This document shows, one piece after another, positions 18,192 through 26,547 of a DNA stretch of 32,530 nucleotides. The stretch is from NCBI GenBank assembly GCA_025463965.1, contig JAODBN010000337.1:1-32530 (forward strand), given 5' to 3'. The stretch comes from Acidimicrobiaceae bacterium. Its GTDB lineage: Bacteria > Actinomycetota > Acidimicrobiia > Acidimicrobiales > Bog-793. The notes beneath the pieces were generated by a model, which searched no databases, was not told the origin of the DNA, and saw nothing but the letters and a program-made list of their open reading frames with translations. The translations under genes were made by a program, and so were the position numbers. Positions within the stretch are counted from its first letter, which is position 1. Each line of letters begins with the position of its first letter.

Positions 18192-18434
18192 CTACTGGGC
18201 CTTTGGGCCGGCGTGTTCGGTGCCGGTGAGCTGGCGGAGGAACTGGTGACAGCGAGCGGCACGCTCGGAGTCCTGTTCCATGACCTCGCGCACGAACTTG
18301 GCAACGTCGTCCAGGCCCGCGTTCTCCGCGTCCCGAACGTATTGCCCGTAGTCATGCCCGGCTTTCAAGGAAAAGTACTGAATCGCCACCAGGTCGTAGA
18401 AGACGTCTTCGAAACCTGTCTCGCCTGTCGCCAT
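18192..18434 (-). CDS. Small helical protein of unknown function (ferritin-like appearance)
   Basis: An excellent AAAGGAGG lies 6 nt before ATG 18434, so this 80-residue ORF is very likely translated. The sequence looks like two amphipathic helices (EDVFYDLVAIQYFSLKAGHDY and LDDVAKFVREVMEQDSERAARC) rich in Asp/Glu and His. It resembles small uncharacterised bacterial proteins with a YDLV...YDQY...EEDRERA pattern that look like half a ferritin-like bundle. Convergence with the iron-permease-like gene is suggestive, but metal binding is inference. The C-terminus TGTEHAGPKAQ is disordered. Confidence 0.75.
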   Translation of the reverse strand: MATGETGFEDVFYDLVAIQYFSLKAGHDYGQYVRDAENAGLDDVAKFVREVMEQDSERAARCHQFLRQLTGTEHAGPKAQ

Positions 18435-19503: not shown

Positions 19504-20706
19504 GTGCTATGCCGCTCCGCAACCCATGCGCCCGCCCCGGGAGTGAGGCTGCGCCACCCGAGCGACGTTTATCTGATGGCTAGTGCTCGCCGGTTGGGCT
19601 TCCAGACTCGATGCCGGCCGCGTTCAGCCGTAGATGTGAATCCACCAAGTCCGGCGAGCATGGCAGCAACGCCGTTCAGTTATATCTTGCCGCTTGCCAC
19701 GAATGCAGCGATTCGGGAGCCGGCCTTCACCGACTACTTGAGCGCGATCGGAGGCAAGAGCGAGCTCATCGTCGTCGATGACTCGCCTCCTGAGGTGTTC
19801 GAGGAACACCACCGTATGTGGGGCGCCCTCTGCCTTCATGTACGTCCTTACGGTGACATGCCGGCAGGCAAGGTCGCCAACGTCATGACCGGTGTACGCC
19901 TCGCCCACCATGACCGGGTGGTCATCGCCGACGATGACGTCCGCTACGAGTCGGAGATCTACGAGATCGTCAGATTGCTGGACGATGCGGATGTTGTCCG
20001 TCCGCAGAACTACTTCTTCCCCGTTCCGTGGCACGCGGCCTGGGATTCCTCCCGCTCATTGCTAGCCCGTCTGTATGGTGGGGACTGGCCTGGCACCCTC
20101 GGCATCAGGCGCAGCACGCTTCTTCGTGCGGGCGGTTACGCCAGCGATGTGTTGTTCGAGAACTACGAATTGTGCAAGACGATCGAAGCAGTCGGCGGAC
20201 GGCATCTTGTCGCCAGCGATGTCTTCGTCCGGCGGATTCCACCGACGACGGACCACTTTGTTCACCAGCGTGTCAGGCAGGCCTATGACGAACTGGCTCG
20301 GCCGTGGCGCTTCATTCCTTTTCTGGCCGTGCTCCCGGGACTTGGTGCCCTAGTCCTGTTCGGGAGGCGACGCCTTGCGGGCCTGAGCTTGGTGGCAAGT
20401 GCTTCGGGCTTGGTACTTGCGGCAGAGGTCGGCCGGCGCCGGGGTGGCGCGTCGCGGTACTTCCCGCTTCGCAGTTCGTTAACTGCGCCGTTGTGGGTGC
20501 TCGAGCGCTCAGCCTGCGTCTGGCTGGCCCTCGGCGCCCGCACCATCGGGGGGGTGCGGTATCGGGGCAGGCGCGTTCGCCGAGCAGCGTTACCGCCCAC
20601 CGAGCGACGAGCAAGGCTCCGCGCTGCTCAACAGTGCGCCCCTGGAGCGGACCTGTTGCTCGCAGACAGCCAAAGCAGCGTTCTTAGTCAATTGATAAGG
20701 AGGTAG
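19504..20706 (+). CDS. Family 2 glycosyltransferase with C-terminal membrane segments
   Basis: The GT-A nucleotide-sugar fold is visible: FSYILPLATNAA opening strand, ELIVVDDSP, then the metal-binding VIADDDVRYESE and a GTLGIRRSTLLRAGGY acceptor-side block followed by FENYELCKTI. After the catalytic part, two hydrophobic segments (RFIPFLAVLPGLGALVLFG and LAGLSLVASASGLVLAAEV) would anchor it in the membrane. GTG 19504 has AAGGAG 5 nt upstream, but the first 50 residues look unlike protein; ATG 19576 or ATG 19660 (MAATPFSYILPL) may be the real start. It ends 3 nt before the diiron-protein gene, whose ribosome binding site lies inside it. The sugar donor and acceptor are unknown. Confidence 0.85.
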   Translation: MLCRSATHAPAPGVRLRHPSDVYLMASARRLGFQTRCRPRSAVDVNPPSPASMAATPFSYILPLATNAAIREPAFTDYLSAIGGKSELIVVDDSPPEVFEEHHRMWGALCLHVRPYGDMPAGKVANVMTGVRLAHHDRVVIADDDVRYESEIYEIVRLLDDADVVRPQNYFFPVPWHAAWDSSRSLLARLYGGDWPGTLGIRRSTLLRAGGYASDVLFENYELCKTIEAVGGRHLVASDVFVRRIPPTTDHFVHQRVRQAYDELARPWRFIPFLAVLPGLGALVLFGRRRLAGLSLVASASGLVLAAEVGRRRGGASRYFPLRSSLTAPLWVLERSACVWLALGARTIGGVRYRGRRVRRAALPPTERRARLRAAQQCAPGADLLLADSQSSVLSQLIRR

Positions 20707-20709
20707 GAA

Positions 20710-21738
20710 GTGCGCATCCCAGCGCTCGACACCGTCGTGGGCGTTCAGTTACCGCAAGCTCGGGGTCCCTTGACCGAGCGACTCTTTTCCCATCTACGAA
20801 GACCTCCTCACCGGTTCTGGTGGGAGCCGAAGCCCGCTTCGGCGTCCGAAGACGATCTTCAACTTGCCCTCTATTGCTGCTACGAGCTCCACTACGGAGG
20901 CCTTCCTGGTGTTGATCCGGACTGGGAGTGGGCTCCCTCCCTGCTCGAAGTGCGCGCCGCGTTAGAGAGGTATATGGAGGCGGACCTGCGAGCACGTGTC
21001 GGACCGATCAATGCTGATCCGAACACGGTGGTCGACGACTTGTGGACTTACGCGACCTCGGGCGGCGGGCCGTCGCTTTCTGGATGGGTAGCCGACTACG
21101 CAACCCTTGAGCACGTACGCGAACTCGCCAAGCACCGCTCGGCCTATCAGCTAAAGGAAGCGGACCCGCACACGTGGGCTATCCCGCGGCTGACGGGCGA
21201 TGCCAAGGCTGTCCTGGTGGCAATTCAAGCGGACGAATACGGCAATGGGGTGGCAAGCGAGATGCATTCCTCGCTGTTCGCGGACACGATGGATTGTCTC
21301 GGGCTCCAAACGCAGCCAAACGCGTACCTCGACGAAATTCCCGGCTTTACCCTTGCTACCGTCAACCTCATCAGCTTGCTTGGCCTCAAGCGTCGCCTCC
21401 GCGCTGCCCTGGTAGGCCACCTCGCTCTGTTTGAGATGACTTCCACCGGACCCATGGGTCGCTACGCCCGGGGATTGGAGCGACTGGGAGTTCCGGCCCG
21501 TGGCCGACGCTTCTACGACGTCCATGTCGAAGCAGACGAGCTACACCAATATCTTGCAAGCGAGGGAATGGTCGCCCACTTGGTCCGTATGGACCCGCAC
21601 CTGGCGGCCGATGTTCGTTTTGGAGCGCTCGCGCTGTCTGCGGTGGAGAGTCATTTCACCGAGGAAGTGCTGGGTCGCTGGTTGGCCGGCGGAACCTCGT
21701 TGCGACCATCGGAGGAACTCGGTCTCAGGGCGCCCTGA
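20710..21738 (+). CDS. Heme-oxygenase-like diiron (iron-containing redox) family protein
   Basis: GTG 20710 has a perfect AAGGAGG 6 nt upstream, inside the glycosyltransferase end, so the two are coupled. The 342-residue all-helical protein matches the iron-containing redox enzyme family (PF14518-like). Candidate metal ligands are Glu59 (CYELHYGG), the acidic and His positions of QADEYGNG...EMHSSLF (residues 174-186), and His272, Asp276 and His279 in HVEADELH. Relatives of this fold carry out oxygen-dependent N-oxygenation or C-C cleavage of amino or fatty acids (SznF, BesC and UndA types). The RLTGDAKAVLV segment is characteristic. The stop codon lies in the palindrome TCAGGGCGCCCTGA. The substrate is unknown; the coupled GT2 gene suggests a modified glycolipid or small metabolite. 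Confidence 0.85.
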   Translation: MRIPALDTVVGVQLPQARGPLTERLFSHLRRPPHRFWWEPKPASASEDDLQLALYCCYELHYGGLPGVDPDWEWAPSLLEVRAALERYMEADLRARVGPINADPNTVVDDLWTYATSGGGPSLSGWVADYATLEHVRELAKHRSAYQLKEADPHTWAIPRLTGDAKAVLVAIQADEYGNGVASEMHSSLFADTMDCLGLQTQPNAYLDEIPGFTLATVNLISLLGLKRRLRAALVGHLALFEMTSTGPMGRYARGLERLGVPARGRRFYDVHVEADELHQYLASEGMVAHLVRMDPHLAADVRFGALALSAVESHFTEEVLGRWLAGGTSLRPSEELGLRAP

Positions 21739-22011
21739 CGATAGCCAGCGACTCGCGAGACTGGGGCGGCTTGACGCTCTACGACGTCGCGACCCTCACG
21801 ACCGCGCGGTGACGCGGATGGGAGCGAGCACAGAGCGGTCAAAGGACCCCGGTATCCGTCCCATGGAGTCGATCGGGGCCTCGTTAACGGTGAACGTGAC
21901 CTCCTTTCGCCTACCTAGATTTACTTCTATGGCGATCCTCGATGACGGCGACCGGCTCTGCGCCGGCCCGGCGGTCACGTCCCCCTCGGCAGGTGCCGAT
22001 CGGTGGCCGTC

Positions 22012-22683
22012 ATGAGCGGCGGTGACGGTGAGGTCCTGCACGGCGGCCACCAGGAAGACCCAGAAGAAACGACGGAACAGGTCTGGGAGCGGCTGTACAC
22101 CGAGCGGGGCCAGCGGTGGTCAGGTCGCCCCAACCAACGCCTCGTCGAGGTCGCCGGCGAATTCACGCCTGGTCGAGCCCTAGACCTGGGCTGCGGAGAG
22201 GGTGGCGATTCCGTGTGGCTGGCCCAGCGGGGCTGGGCGGTGACCGCCGTCGACGTTTCTCCGACGGCGCTGGGCCGGCTGACTGCGCAGGCCGAATCCG
22301 CGGGCGTGGCCGATCGCATCGCCGCGATCTGCATCGACCTGGCCACGGCGTTCCCGGACGTTCCCGACGGAGGGTGGCACCTCGTGTCGGCTCAGTTCTT
22401 CCAAAGCACCCTCGCGTTGCCCCGTACGGCCATCCTGCGCCGGGCGGCAGCCGCTGTCGCCCTAGGCGGGCTGCTGCTCGTCGTGGACCACGGCGAAGCA
22501 CCGCCTTCGTCCAACCACCACGACGTTGTCTTCCCCACCGTGGAGGAAACGCTCGCCGAGCTCGCCCTCCCGTCCGACGCTTGGTCGCCCGTGCGGGTGG
22601 AGCGGTCCACAAGGGAATCCGAGGGCCCCGATGGCCAGCGCGTCGAGTTCGTCGACAATGTCCTCGCCCTGCGACGCGTATGA
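22012..22683 (+). CDS. Class I SAM-dependent methyltransferase
   Basis: The 223-residue protein starts at ATG 22012 (GGTGG upstream); the tracked GTG 22003 is an alternative. Motif I is ALDLGCGEGGDSVWLAQRGW, followed by the acidic VTAVDVS at the end of strand 2 and ICIDLATAFPD. VWERLYTERGQRWSGRPN at the start resembles the thiopurine-S-methyltransferase/TehB-like group that methylates small molecules or oxyanions. The C-terminal half (LLVVDHGEAP, VEFVDNVLALRR) completes the fold. It lies 270 nt after the diiron-protein gene, so operon membership is possible but not assured. It is convergent with putA. Confidence 0.9.
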   Translation: MSGGDGEVLHGGHQEDPEETTEQVWERLYTERGQRWSGRPNQRLVEVAGEFTPGRALDLGCGEGGDSVWLAQRGWAVTAVDVSPTALGRLTAQAESAGVADRIAAICIDLATAFPDVPDGGWHLVSAQFFQSTLALPRTAILRRAAAAVALGGLLLVVDHGEAPPSSNHHDVVFPTVEETLAELALPSDAWSPVRVERSTRESEGPDGQRVEFVDNVLALRRV

Positions 22684-22790: not shown

Positions 22791-22820
22791 GACGGTCGTC
22801 GCTACTCTTTCACGACCGTC
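22791..22820 (-). terminator. Stem-loop spanning the putA stop codon
   Basis: GACGGTCGT (22791-22799) and ACGACCGTC (22812-22820) are exact inverted copies with a 12-nt loop that contains the putA stop codon. The position between two convergent genes fits a bidirectional terminator, but there is no T-run on either side. Confidence 0.35.
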
Positions 22821-25800
22821 GAGGCTCGTGGAGTGATATTGCCATGTCGGTGCAGCGTTCTGCTTTCAGCCTGCTCGCGCGTCCAGTGCAGGAGCTCGAC
22901 GCTCCCTACCGCGGAAAGCGGCTCGACATCCGCGTCCAGACCAGCATCCAGTACTTCAAGCCGAAGCAATGGTGAGACACCGTGCAGTCGGACCCGATCG
23001 GCACCCAACTCTTTTGCTCTGGCAATGAATGCGGCGCCCGCTTCGACAACCGTGGACTCCGGAAGCCCCGGATACAGCTCGTCCGCTGAAAGCAACAGTG
23101 CGGTTCGGAGCTCGAGCGCGATGCCCAGGGCCACGGCAAGCGCCACGGGATCCGGCGGGGACCCAAGGCGAAGCGCGACGCGTTGGAGCGGGCGCAACCG
23201 GAAGATGTTGCTCTCGGCGCAAAGCGCCGTCGGGTCTTCGCCTTCCACTCGGTGACGCCAATCGCGAATGGCCAAGTCGAGTTCGTCGGCGGCCACGGCC
23301 GGCTCCATGGTGGTCCATGCTCCAAGTGAACCTACGTAGTGCGGTCCACCGGTCTTGGCGCCGCTCCCGATGCTCGAGCGCTTCCAGCCACCAAAGGGCT
23401 GGCGTCGGACAATGGCACCGGTGGTATGTCGGTTCACGTACGCGTTGCCGACTTCGACACGCTCGAGCCAGTAGTCCGCTTCCCGGTGGTCCAGCGTTTG
23501 GATGCCGCCGGTGAGCCCGTAGGCGGGCATGTTCTGAAGGTGGATCGCCTCGTCAAGGTTTTCCGCGCGCATGAGGCCGAGTGCCGGCCCGAAGCACTCG
23601 GTGAGGTGGAACTCGCTCCCCGGCGCGATGCCGAGCTTCACGCCGGGACTCCACAGGTGCGGGTTCTCCCCCACCTGGGTCGGGCGGACCAGCCACTTCT
23701 CGCCTGGAGAAAGCTCCGTCAGGGCGCGGGCCAGCGGCCCCTCAGGCGGCCGGATCAGCGGACCGACCTCGCTCGCCATCTCCCAGGCGGGCCCTACCCG
23801 CAGGCTTCGCACGGCATCGGCAAGCCGCGTGCGAAAATGCGGGTCGTCGTAGAGGGAGGACTCAACGATCGCCAGGCTCGCGGCCGAGCACTTCTGGCCG
23901 GCGTGCGAGAAGGCCGACCGGAGCAGGTCCCGGATGGCGTCGTCCTGGTCTGCCGCCGCGGTGATGACCATGGCGTTCTTGCCGCTGGTCTCGGCGTGCA
24001 GCTTTAGCGTCGGCTTCCATTCGAGGAAGCGCCGCCCGGTCTCGAAGGCGCCCGTGAGGATGACCGCGTCGACGTCGTCGTGGGCGATGAGGCGCCGGCC
24101 GACCTCGTCATCCGCGGTAGGCACGAATTGGAGCAGGTCTCGAGGCACACCGGCCGACCAGCAACTGCAGGCCAGCGTCCACGCTGTGAGCACCGATTCC
24201 GGCGCAGGCTTGAGGATGACTGCCCCTCCCGCTGCCAGTACCGCGAAGACCCCGCCTGCGGGGATGGCGAACGGGAAGTTCCAAGGGGGCGCCAGCACCA
24301 CTACGTCGTAGGGATCGAATCGGTACTTAGGGAGCCGCGTATCGAGCTCAAGCGCTCGATCGCCGTAGTAGCGGGCGAAGTCGATCGCCTCGGACACCTC
24401 CGGGTCGGCCTCGCCGACCGTCTTTCCCGCGTCGTGTGCCATAACGGCGATGGCGCGGCCGCGGTCGGAGACAATGCTCGCCGCAGCCCGATACAGGACC
24501 TCCCGGCGTTCGGAAGCAGTCCGGGAGCGCCAGACCGCGCCGGCGCGCTTAGCCGAGGCAACGGCGCGCTCCACCGTCGCGAGGTCGGCCTGCACGTAAC
24601 GGTAGAGCGGAGAAGCCGGAGCCGAGGGATCGATCCCGGTCCCACTCGCCGGCTCCTTGACGCTCTCACCGTCAACAACGGCAGGAACCGGCTCGCCCGG
24701 CGGCTTCCAGCTCAGCAAATGGTTGGCAAGCCAGCGGCGGTTGCGCTCCAGGGTGAAGTCGGTGTCCGGCTCGTTGCGGAACGCGCCCGCTTCGGAACCG
24801 TGGGCCGACCTTGCCCGGCCGGAAGCACCCGTAGCTCGGGGGCGGCCGAGCGCAGCCTGCTTCCCCGTCTCGTCCCCGGCGGGAAGTTCCTCGGCGGCAC
24901 GGTCCTGACTGCGCCGGGGCGGTCCGATCGGCAGTCGCCGGGCGGCCACTGCCGCCTCGAAGCGCGCCCGCTCGCGTGTCCAAGTCGGCGTCCCCGGATG
25001 GAGGTCGAACAGATGGGCGAGGAAGTTCTCCGGCGCGGTGTTCTCGTCGAATCGACGCACGAGATAGGCGACCGCCGACTCGAACTCGTCTCGCCGGACG
25101 ACCGGAGCGTAGAGAAGAAGGCCGCCGGCGAGGCGGCTTGTCGCCAGTGCCAGCGGCTCGGCCATGCCCTCGAGCATCTCCACCTCGACCGCGTCGCGCC
25201 GACCGGCCGCCTCCCGACGCACCAGTGCCCAACCGACGTCGAACAGGTTGTGGCTGGCGACGCCCACGCGCAGGGCTCCGGCATTCGCCGGGTCGAGTGC
25301 CAAGTCGAGGAGGCGCTTGTAGTTGGCGTCGACGTCCTCCTTGTGCTGGAACGGTGCCTGCTGCCAGCCCTGCAGCTCCGCTTCCACGCGCTCCATCGCC
25401 AAATTCGCGCCCTTGACGATGCGTACCTTGATCGCGCTCCCGTGGCGAGCATGTCGCTCCCTGGCGTAGGTGCAGAGACGCGCGAGCGCCGGATAGGAGT
25501 CCGGGAGATAGGCCTGAAGCACGATGCCCGCGTCGAGGCCCGTGAGGTCAGGCTCTGAGAGCAGTGTCGTGAAGGCGTCCACGGTGAGCTGGAGGTCGCG
25601 GTACTCCTCCATGTCGAGGTTGACGAACTTCGGTGGGTCGTAGCGTGCGGCCGAGGCGTAGATGGTGCGAAGCCGCTCGATGATTCGCTGCAGGCTGTGC
25701 TCATAGGCCAGGACGTCGAGGCGCGAGCAGATCGAGGTGATCTTCACCGACACGTAGTCGACCTCGGGTCGCTCGATGAGCTCGATCACTCGCTCGGTGC

Positions 25801-26308
25801 GCGCCTCGGCCTCCTGCTCGCCGAGGACGGCCTCTCCGAGCAGGTTCACGTTGACCCGGACGCCCTGGGAAGAGCGTTCCCGAATGTGGCGCGCCAGGCG
25901 CTTTGGCTCTGCCGGCAGGACCAGGCCGGCGAGCTCGCGCCGAAGGCGAGCCGTAGCGAGGGCGATCACCACGTCGGGAACGACCGACGCGAACCGGGCA
26001 CCGAGCAAGAGTGCGGCGCGGTCGATCCCCCGGGCGAAACTCGGGACCCCGTGCTCCTCCACGAGGTCGCGCAGCCGCAGCGCCGCGCGGCGCGGCGAGC
26101 TGATCCGCAGCACCTGATCGGTGAGCTCGGTCAGAAACGCTTGGCTGGCCGGATCGGCGAGCAGTACACCGATCTGGCGCCGCCGCCGGCCCGCTGCCTT
26201 TGACTCAGTCGTCTCCGCAGTCGCCATGAGGCCGCGAGCGAGCTCCTCAGCCATGGCAATCGAGGGACTGTCCGAGGGGTAGCCGGCGTCCGGCGGTGCT
26301 TGGCTCAT
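22802..26308 (-). CDS. putA: Bifunctional proline dehydrogenase / L-glutamate gamma-semialdehyde dehydrogenase
   Basis: This large fused enzyme (1168 residues from ATG 26308; the tracked start is 22 codons upstream) oxidises proline to glutamate in two steps. An N-terminal helical arm leads into the FAD-dependent proline dehydrogenase barrel (about residues 100-470; YVSVKITSICS, RIVKGANLAMERVEAEL, HNLFDVGWALVRR). A Gly/Arg/Pro-rich linker of about 60 residues follows, then the NAD-dependent aldehyde dehydrogenase domain (APPWNFPFAIP, HAETSGKN with Glu773, SHAGQKCSA with nucleophile Cys807). A C-terminal extension (about 1020-1168) resembles the ALDH-superfamily tail of long PutA types. There is no N-terminal ribbon-helix-helix DNA-binding domain, so it does not regulate itself. 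It diverges from a GntR regulator that may control it. Confidence 0.95.
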   Translation of the reverse strand: MSQAPPDAGYPSDSPSIAMAEELARGLMATAETTESKAAGRRRRQIGVLLADPASQAFLTELTDQVLRISSPRRAALRLRDLVEEHGVPSFARGIDRAALLLGARFASVVPDVVIALATARLRRELAGLVLPAEPKRLARHIRERSSQGVRVNVNLLGEAVLGEQEAEARTERVIELIERPEVDYVSVKITSICSRLDVLAYEHSLQRIIERLRTIYASAARYDPPKFVNLDMEEYRDLQLTVDAFTTLLSEPDLTGLDAGIVLQAYLPDSYPALARLCTYARERHARHGSAIKVRIVKGANLAMERVEAELQGWQQAPFQHKEDVDANYKRLLDLALDPANAGALRVGVASHNLFDVGWALVRREAAGRRDAVEVEMLEGMAEPLALATSRLAGGLLLYAPVVRRDEFESAVAYLVRRFDENTAPENFLAHLFDLHPGTPTWTRERARFEAAVAARRLPIGPPRRSQDRAAEELPAGDETGKQAALGRPRATGASGRARSAHGSEAGAFRNEPDTDFTLERNRRWLANHLLSWKPPGEPVPAVVDGESVKEPASGTGIDPSAPASPLYRYVQADLATVERAVASAKRAGAVWRSRTASERREVLYRAAASIVSDRGRAIAVMAHDAGKTVGEADPEVSEAIDFARYYGDRALELDTRLPKYRFDPYDVVVLAPPWNFPFAIPAGGVFAVLAAGGAVILKPAPESVLTAWTLACSCWSAGVPRDLLQFVPTADDEVGRRLIAHDDVDAVILTGAFETGRRFLEWKPTLKLHAETSGKNAMVITAAADQDDAIRDLLRSAFSHAGQKCSAASLAIVESSLYDDPHFRTRLADAVRSLRVGPAWEMASEVGPLIRPPEGPLARALTELSPGEKWLVRPTQVGENPHLWSPGVKLGIAPGSEFHLTECFGPALGLMRAENLDEAIHLQNMPAYGLTGGIQTLDHREADYWLERVEVGNAYVNRHTTGAIVRRQPFGGWKRSSIGSGAKTGGPHYVGSLGAWTTMEPAVAADELDLAIRDWRHRVEGEDPTALCAESNIFRLRPLQRVALRLGSPPDPVALAVALGIALELRTALLLSADELYPGLPESTVVEAGAAFIARAKELGADRVRLHGVSPLLRLEVLDAGLDADVEPLSAVGSVELLHWTREQAESRTLHRHGNITPRASTVVKE

Positions 26309-26547
26309 CTGTGTTCTCTCCCGGTACCGACCGACCGCTCCCGGCATAGTTCTGCTGGTAGGCACACCCCGCATTTGCGCCGGGTTGCATCAAGCATCTC
26401 CCGCGGAGCGGAAGGTCCAAGGCCCAAGGGAGAAACGCGTCGCTGGTAGGCTCGGTGCGTGCAACAGCCCGTATTTCTCGTGGTCTCGCCACTGATCGCG
26501 CCTCGGACTACGTCCAGCGCCGTGCCCCGTTGAGCGACGCTGGCCGC

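What the first reader, a model, noticed from the sequence alone, without database searches (positions are those of the whole stretch)
19504..22683. GT2 glycosyltransferase translationally coupled to a heme-oxygenase-like diiron protein, with a methyltransferase nearby
The diiron-protein start is 3 nt after the glycosyltransferase stop, with its AAGGAGG inside the upstream gene. Heme-oxygenase-like diiron enzymes are a growing source of unusual oxidations (N-oxygenation, C-C cleavage). A coupled membrane glycosyltransferase and a small-molecule methyltransferase form a compact tailoring set with no known product.
Basis: partly seen in the sequence, partly recalled or inferred. Interest (0 to 1): 0.5.

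Follow-up and report, generated by a model that had tools for sequence, protein, structure and literature searches.

The report
Membrane glycosyltransferase coupled to diiron N-oxygenase
Two adjacent genes encode a membrane sugar-transferring enzyme and an oxygen-using iron enzyme that stay together (and are sometimes fused) across distant actinobacteria, and in one genus the iron enzyme's place is taken by an unrelated heme enzyme family that hydroxylates nitrogen, so the pair probably makes an undescribed nitrogen-oxidised, sugar-bearing compound.

Summary
The HDO (20710-21738; PF14518, 1.5e-49) starts 3 nt after the GT stop, with AAGGAGG at 20697-20703 inside the GT gene. The GT probably starts near 19663, not 19504. 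All putative diiron ligands are kept, and the fold model matches the N-oxygenases HrmI, SznF and RohS.

The linkage is real. In 296 genomes of the class, all 9 with this GT also have the HDO (chance 1e-11), adjacent in 7. In a phylum sample, 12 of 16 GT places lie beside an HDO. Two Microbispora species fuse both in one ORF. HDO->GT is the usual order; the window's GT->HDO is unusual.

New: in three genomes of one genus with GT but no HDO, the GT is followed by a GntA-family (YqcI/YcgG) heme N-hydroxylase. These GTs nest beside the window's. This non-homologous replacement suggests that the HDO too N-hydroxylates, possibly a guanidine. Elsewhere a CDGSH [2Fe-2S] protein (candidate electron donor) and a CcbJ-like N-methyltransferase recur beside the HDO. 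The window's own methyltransferase is not an ortholog of that one and is not shown to belong.

Verdict: a new variant built from known enzyme kinds; product unknown; biochemistry inferred, not shown.

The parts
19663..20706 (+). Membrane glycosyltransferase, GT2 superfamily (347 aa from the likely start M54 of the ORF 19504-20706). GT-A domain with invariant D39, D90-D91-D92, E166-N167-x-E169 and Q202-R-x-R205-Q206; C-terminal hydrophobic helices.
19504..19662 (+).
20697..20703 (+). AAGGAGG ribosome-binding site of the HDO, inside the end of the GT gene
   Evidence: read directly
20710..21738 (+). Heme-oxygenase-like diiron oxidase/oxygenase (HDO, 342 aa, PF14518). Putative ligands E150, E176, H186, E242, H272, D276, H279, aligned with SznF E189, E215, H225, E281, H311, D315, H318 (SznF numbers derived from the chain numbering of the alignment; ligand identities recalled from the SznF structure)
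22003..22683 (+). Class I SAM-dependent methyltransferase (TehB/CpaM-like). Nearby, but not shown to belong: relatives lie near an HDO in only 2 of 80 loci (L075, L037)

Best explanation
The two genes encode one functional unit: a soluble diiron N-oxygenase (HDO) held close to a membrane glycosyltransferase by coupled translation here, and by covalent fusion in Microbispora. Most likely the HDO binds two irons, activates O2 and N-hydroxylates a nitrogen of a small molecule, with a guanidine as the leading candidate group. The GT transfers a sugar from a nucleotide sugar at the cytoplasmic face of the membrane, in the same pathway: either it caps the reactive N-oxygenated product or it makes the substrate. 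In other hosts a CDGSH [2Fe-2S] protein probably supplies electrons, and an N-methyltransferase modifies the same or a neighbouring nitrogen. SHOWN by sequence: linkage, co-occurrence, fusion, conserved ligands and catalytic motifs, and replacement of the HDO by a GntA-family protein. INFERRED: N-oxygenation, the guanidine substrate, the order of steps, channelling, and the CDGSH role. The product is unknown.
For: Co-occurrence: 9 of 9 GT genomes have the HDO in the class sample (22 of 296 have HDO; P 1.2e-11). In the phylum sample 12 of 16 GT places lie beside an HDO. In a 7.3 Gb plasmid/replicon collection the GT has a single hit, in Nonomuraea, about 1.4 kb from its HDO. Enrichment is confined to the neighbourhood: GT 0.20 per kb in the first kb, none beyond 3 kb. 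Coupling: GT start 1 nt before the HDO stop in many HDO->GT loci. Fusion: L056 708 aa and L063 785 aa, HDO + linker + GT in one ORF. Chemistry: the HDO profile matches HrmI 4e-25, SznF 5e-21 and RohS 2e-15 in PDB. A confident model (pLDDT 92.9) has HrmI, SznF and RohS as its best structural matches. Replacement: three HDO-less genomes of one genus carry methyltransferase -> GT -> GntA-family N-hydroxylase (275-289 bits, cut-off 145), with DUF1989 after it in L119. These GTs nest with the window's GT (97/92 support). The YqcI/YcgG family hydroxylates guanidine N-H (PMC12866846); the HDO domain of SznF hydroxylates a methylated arginine (PMC13108848). Neighbouring MT3 is closest to CcbJ, 7e-44, then YunM and CypM.
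Against: No product or activity is known. HDOs as a superfamily also desaturate, decarboxylate and cleave C-C bonds. The GntA replacement is seen in three genomes of one genus, so it is one evolutionary event, and NCBIfam's GntA model may cover more than one substrate. HrmI is listed as 3H/3C although it too has a Glu aligned with E242, so a 3H/4C site is not proven. Many HDOs of this clade have no GT: 33 of 39 checked genomes without a linked GT lack it entirely, so the GT is an optional add-on. The window genome shows no CDGSH gene (assembly 77% complete), so its electron donor is unknown. The closest HDO relatives of the window lack the GT, and HDO and GT histories disagree.
Confidence: 0.55

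Rival explanations
1. The HDO acts on carbon of a lipid (UndA-like decarboxylation, desaturation or hydroxylation of a fatty acyl group) and the membrane GT makes a glycolipid from it.
For: The GT is membrane-bound, with lipid-linked-sugar GTs and ceramide-type GT21 among its relatives. UndA is an HDO.
Against: UndA is a distant structural match (TM 0.45, E 0.014) compared with HrmI/SznF/RohS. A GntA-type N-hydroxylase replaces the HDO in one genus. Recurrent neighbours are amine N-methyltransferase-like; the Pfam-scanned neighbours of the linked loci gave no lipid-synthesis set.
Confidence: 0.2
2. The HDO is a stress-protection protein (iron or O2/ROS handling, as suggested for Acinetobacter DtpC), and the GT is an envelope gene co-regulated with it.
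For: DtpC, an HDO-like protein, protects dried cells and needs its metal ligands (PMC13232832). Some actinobacterial HDO-CDGSH loci lie among sigma-factor, STAS or gas-vesicle genes.
Against: Fusion with a GT and replacement by an N-hydroxylase point to one biosynthetic step rather than co-regulation alone. Active-site motifs of both proteins are invariant.
Confidence: 0.15
3. A three-enzyme small-molecule tailoring set (GT, HDO and the methyltransferase at 22003-22683).
For: The MT is co-directional and 264 nt downstream. Relatives of it lie near an HDO in L075 (40.7% over 209 aa) and L037. MTases are enriched next to HDOs in general.
Against: Found in 2 of 80 loci only. The recurrent MTase is a different subfamily (MT3, CcbJ-like), whose homolog in this genome lies on another contig. 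Higher GC3 than GT and HDO (0.81 against 0.68-0.72).
Confidence: 0.2
4. Chance adjacency of two unrelated genes.
For: The closest HDO relatives of the window lack the GT, and the gene order here differs from the rest.
Against: Co-occurrence, adjacency, overlap and fusion in distant lineages.
Confidence: 0.02

Closest known systems
HrmI (HDO N-oxygenase, nitro group formation on the L-lysine side chain, hormaomycin)
   Same: Best sequence-profile (4e-25) and fold match (TM 0.74); HDO fold; stand-alone domain
   Different: About 20% identity; no GT partner known to me; the window lacks any peptide-synthetase context
SznF HDO domain (streptozotocin, guanidine N-hydroxylation)
   Same: Putative ligands align one to one, including the extra Glu (E281 / E242); the pathway also has an N-methylation and a sugar
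   Different: No cupin domain; no nitrosation module; the GT here is a membrane enzyme
RohS (azomycin N-oxygenase)
   Same: Stand-alone HDO N-oxygenase; profile match 2e-15
   Different: Shorter; about 18% identity
MboA-MboB (mangotoxin HDO with a dedicated redox partner, PMC13185094)
   Same: Precedent for an HDO with a dedicated Fe-S redox partner encoded next to it, as CDGSH may be in related loci
   Different: MboB is a flavin/2Fe-2S reductase, not CDGSH; MboA makes an alkyne; no partner is seen in this window
GntA/AglA/DcsA (YqcI/YcgG heme guanidine N-hydroxylases)
   Same: Occupies the HDO's place after the same GT in one genus
   Different: Unrelated fold and cofactor; not in this window
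PcManGT (6yv7), membrane mannosyltransferase of Pyrobaculum
   Same: Nearest solved GT by sequence profile (1e-4) and fold
   Different: About 20% identity; archaeal; acceptor not transferable

Membership tests
HDO superfamily (PF14518) | Heme-oxygenase-like all-helical fold | tested here: met
   Model pLDDT 92.9, pTM 0.91; 30 PDB matches E<0.001, headed by HDOs
HDO superfamily (PF14518) | Three His and three or four carboxylate ligands | tested here: met
   E176, H186, E242, H272, D276, H279 invariant in 57 sequences, E150 in 56, aligned with SznF. Metal binding itself not tested
HDO superfamily (PF14518) | Binds two irons and activates O2 | not testable with these tools
   Needs purified protein
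HDO N-oxygenases (SznF, HrmI, RohS) | Closest by sequence and structure to these among solved HDOs | tested here: met
HDO N-oxygenases (SznF, HrmI, RohS) | Oxygenates nitrogen | not testable with these tools
   Only indirect: GntA-family protein in the same operon position in one genus
SznF proper | C-terminal cupin domain for nitroso formation | tested here: not met
   342 aa, only PF14518 found
GT2 superfamily | GT-A nucleotide-sugar domain with a DxD-type motif | tested here: met
   D39 and D90-D92 invariant; GT2 structures top the fold search. PF00535 match is just below its cut-off, PF13506 above
GT2 superfamily, cellulose-synthase-like branch | ED catalytic base and QxxRW acceptor motif | tested here: inconclusive
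   Variant ENxE and QRxRQ, invariant or nearly so in the family
HpnI / GT21 | Curated model score | tested here: not met
   HpnI 26 bits against a cut-off of 310; PF13506 only 25 bits, partial
Conserved HDO + CDGSH + GT + N-methyltransferase set | CDGSH protein beside the HDO | tested here: not met
   No PF09360 match in G000, assembly 77% complete; present within 5 kb at 42 of 69 HDO places elsewhere

The most novel reading that the evidence does not exclude
A family of membrane glycosyltransferases works as a platform for N-oxygenases, pairing with or fusing to either a diiron (HDO) or a heme (GntA-type) enzyme, to make a widespread but undescribed class of N-hydroxylated (perhaps guanidine), sometimes N-methylated glycoconjugates in actinobacteria, with CDGSH proteins as electron donors.
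Probability: 0.35. Interest if true: 0.78.

Novelty: new variant of a known kind. Interest (0 to 1): 0.6.

Why it matters
According to a 2026 review (PMC13108848) there are more than 10,000 HDOs, of which few have known reactions. An HDO fused to a membrane glycosyltransferase, swapped in one genus for an unrelated heme N-hydroxylase, narrows a blank family to a concrete test (N-hydroxylation of a guanidine or amine followed or preceded by glycosylation). It also points to a conserved small metabolic unit spread over many actinobacterial families. The CDGSH link would be a second, different kind of dedicated HDO electron donor.

Tried and rejected
Chance adjacency: rejected. The window methyltransferase as a conserved member: not supported. 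CDGSH partner in the window genome: not found. Known biosynthetic cluster around the pair: the scanned flanking genes are a DeoR regulator, ABC transporter, AMP-binding, thiolase, E1 dehydrogenase, cyclase, MFS, MBL-fold and PutA-type genes, with no obvious link. Rfam families at 17-23 kb: none. Sigma-70-like promoters: none, uninformative for this GC content. L094 'GT-CDGSH fusion': looks like a frame-broken GT running into CDGSH, not counted. Literature: searches combining 'iron-containing redox enzyme' or CDGSH with glycosyltransferase, diiron, methyltransferase or gene cluster found no paper; the library misses most subscription journals. GT distribution inside the genus of the fused loci could not be searched.

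Full report
OBSERVATION. The window is one whole contig (C410) of a 3.54 Mb, 438-contig assembly, 77% complete. The reported geometry is right: GT stop TAG at 20704-20706, three bases, HDO start GTG at 20710, and AAGGAGG at 20697-20703 inside the GT gene. The HDO is PF14518, 168.7 bits. The GT is a weak GT2/GT21 match. The ORF at 22003-22683 is a class I methyltransferase. The GT 5' end should be moved: orthologs start near window residue 54-59, and 19504-19662 has flat GC at the three codon positions (0.68/0.64/0.64) against 0.67/0.51/0.72 in the core. The likely start is ATG 19663.

LINKAGE. 80 HDO relatives (about 45-61% identity) were fetched from genome contigs. A GT ortholog (36-56%) lies next to the HDO in about 35. 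Most are HDO->GT tandem (28 of the 36 linked loci examined, window included), many with the GT start 1 nt before the HDO stop; four have the GT downstream on the opposite strand, one has it upstream on the opposite strand, two are fusions, and the window alone is GT->HDO. In an even sample of 296 genomes of the class, HDO is in 22 and GT in 9; all 9 have HDO (P 1.2e-11) and 7 are adjacent. In 317 genomes of the phylum, HDO is in 65 and GT in 16; 13 have both, and 12 of 16 GT places lie within 5 kb of an HDO. The dependence is one-sided: of 39 genomes whose HDO has no linked GT, 33 have no GT at all. GT, CDGSH and MTase matches are concentrated within 2 kb of the HDO, with almost none beyond 3 kb. 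The clusters that gave these profiles came from the same loci, so this last figure is descriptive.

FUSION AND HISTORY. In Microbispora triticiradicis (L056:5382-7505, 708 aa) and M. amethystogenes (L063:5995-8349, 785 aa) HDO and GT are one open frame with linkers of about 60 and 135 residues; M. bryophytorum (L092) keeps them separate. The HDO tree needs 15 changes of the GT label, at least 8 forced by well supported branches, against 26 in shuffles: the GT is gained, lost or unlinked repeatedly. The window HDO groups with L018/L019, which lack a linked GT, while its GT groups with those of L003, L033, L059, L023 and others. An AU test rejects the HDOs of window, L003 and L033 as one clade (p 0.0045). 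So the pair here was probably re-assembled, in a new order.

HDO. All putative ligands are kept: E150, E176, H186, E242, H272, D276 and H279, aligned with SznF positions 189, 215, 225, 281, 311, 315 and 318. That these SznF residues are ligands is recalled from the SznF structure; the review describes its 3H/4C set (PMC13108848). HrmI, listed there as 3H/3C, also has a Glu aligned with E242, so a 3H/4C site is likely but not proven. Profile search: HrmI 4e-25, SznF 5e-21, RohS 2e-15. AlphaFold2 model pLDDT 92.9; best Foldseek matches HrmI (TM 0.74), SznF, RohS, then FlcD; UndA far below.

GT. Model pLDDT 90.4. Nearest solved enzymes are PcManGT by profile and fold, then cellulose synthase, RmlT, hyaluronan synthases and lipid-phosphate GTs. 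Motifs D39, DDD 90-92, ENxE 166-169 and QRxRQ 202-206 are essentially invariant. C-terminal helices suggest membrane association; topology was not tested.

REPLACEMENT. Three genomes, all of one genus (g270), have the GT without the HDO. There the GT is preceded by a methyltransferase and followed by a protein matching NCBIfam GntA (275, 277 and 289 bits; cut-off 145), with DUF1989 next in L119. In L121 the GT reading frame is broken. The GTs of L119 and L120 form a pair nested in an eight-member set that holds the window GT (97/92). YqcI/YcgG proteins hydroxylate guanidine N-H (PMC12866846), and SznF's HDO domain hydroxylates methylated arginine (PMC13108848). Two unrelated oxygenases after the same GT are best explained by the same kind of reaction. 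This is one evolutionary event, so it is suggestive, not proof.

OTHER PARTNERS. A CDGSH protein lies within 5 kb of 42 of 69 HDO places in the phylum sample (lower bound, list truncated). HDOs need electrons, and MboA-MboB is called possibly the first dedicated HDO-redox pair (PMC13185094), so CDGSH is a good candidate donor. None was found in the window genome. MT3, the recurrent methyltransferase, is closest to CcbJ (7e-44), then YunM and CypM, which by their names and from memory methylate amines. G536 has GT-HDO, MT3 and a second HDO together. The window genome has an MT3 homolog on another contig, C121.

CONCLUSION. The GT-HDO pair is a real, conserved functional unit (about 0.95). N-oxygenation is the best reading (about 0.65), a guanidine substrate less sure (about 0.4). 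The methyltransferase of the window is not established as a member. The enzymes belong to known kinds; in the papers searched I found no description of the pairing, the fusion or the oxygenase swap.

Noticed in passing
L087:8117-8329, L069:7977-8189; G348:C11, G356:C75, G549:C1 and others: A small CDGSH [2Fe-2S] protein gene lies within 5 kb of 42 of 69 HDO places across actinobacteria, often under 150 bp away: candidate dedicated redox partner.
   Followed up: partly
L119:435-3826, L120:3895-7262, L121:4731-7484: Operon methyltransferase -> GT -> GntA-family heme N-hydroxylase (-> DUF1989, identified in L119) in genomes without the HDO.
   Followed up: yes
L123 (G536:C33:12000-24000): Two HDO genes in divergent arrangement around an MT3 methyltransferase, one followed by the GT.
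   Followed up: no
L056, L063, L107 (Streptomyces sp. NBC_00984 plasmid): HDO units next to gas-vesicle gene clusters in Microbispora and in a Streptomyces plasmid.
   Followed up: no
L108:7118-9963: Kitasatospora plasmid: dimethylargininase, HDO, CDGSH and a HemK2/MTQ2-type methyltransferase in a row; fits arginine/guanidine chemistry but is a single case.
   Followed up: no
L094:7068-8006: GT copy apparently broken by a frame change and running into the CDGSH gene.
   Followed up: partly
L018 and L019: Nearly identical HDO loci from MAGs labelled Actinomycetes and Acidobacteriota: mis-binning or recent transfer.
   Followed up: no
window 18192-18434 (-): 80-aa ORF without Pfam match, 67% identical over 77 aa to one in Arthrobacter locus L085 and 40% in L031: conserved small protein of unknown function.
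   Followed up: no
window 22802-26374 (-): 1190-aa bifunctional proline dehydrogenase / aldehyde dehydrogenase (PutA-type), convergent with the methyltransferase.
   Followed up: no
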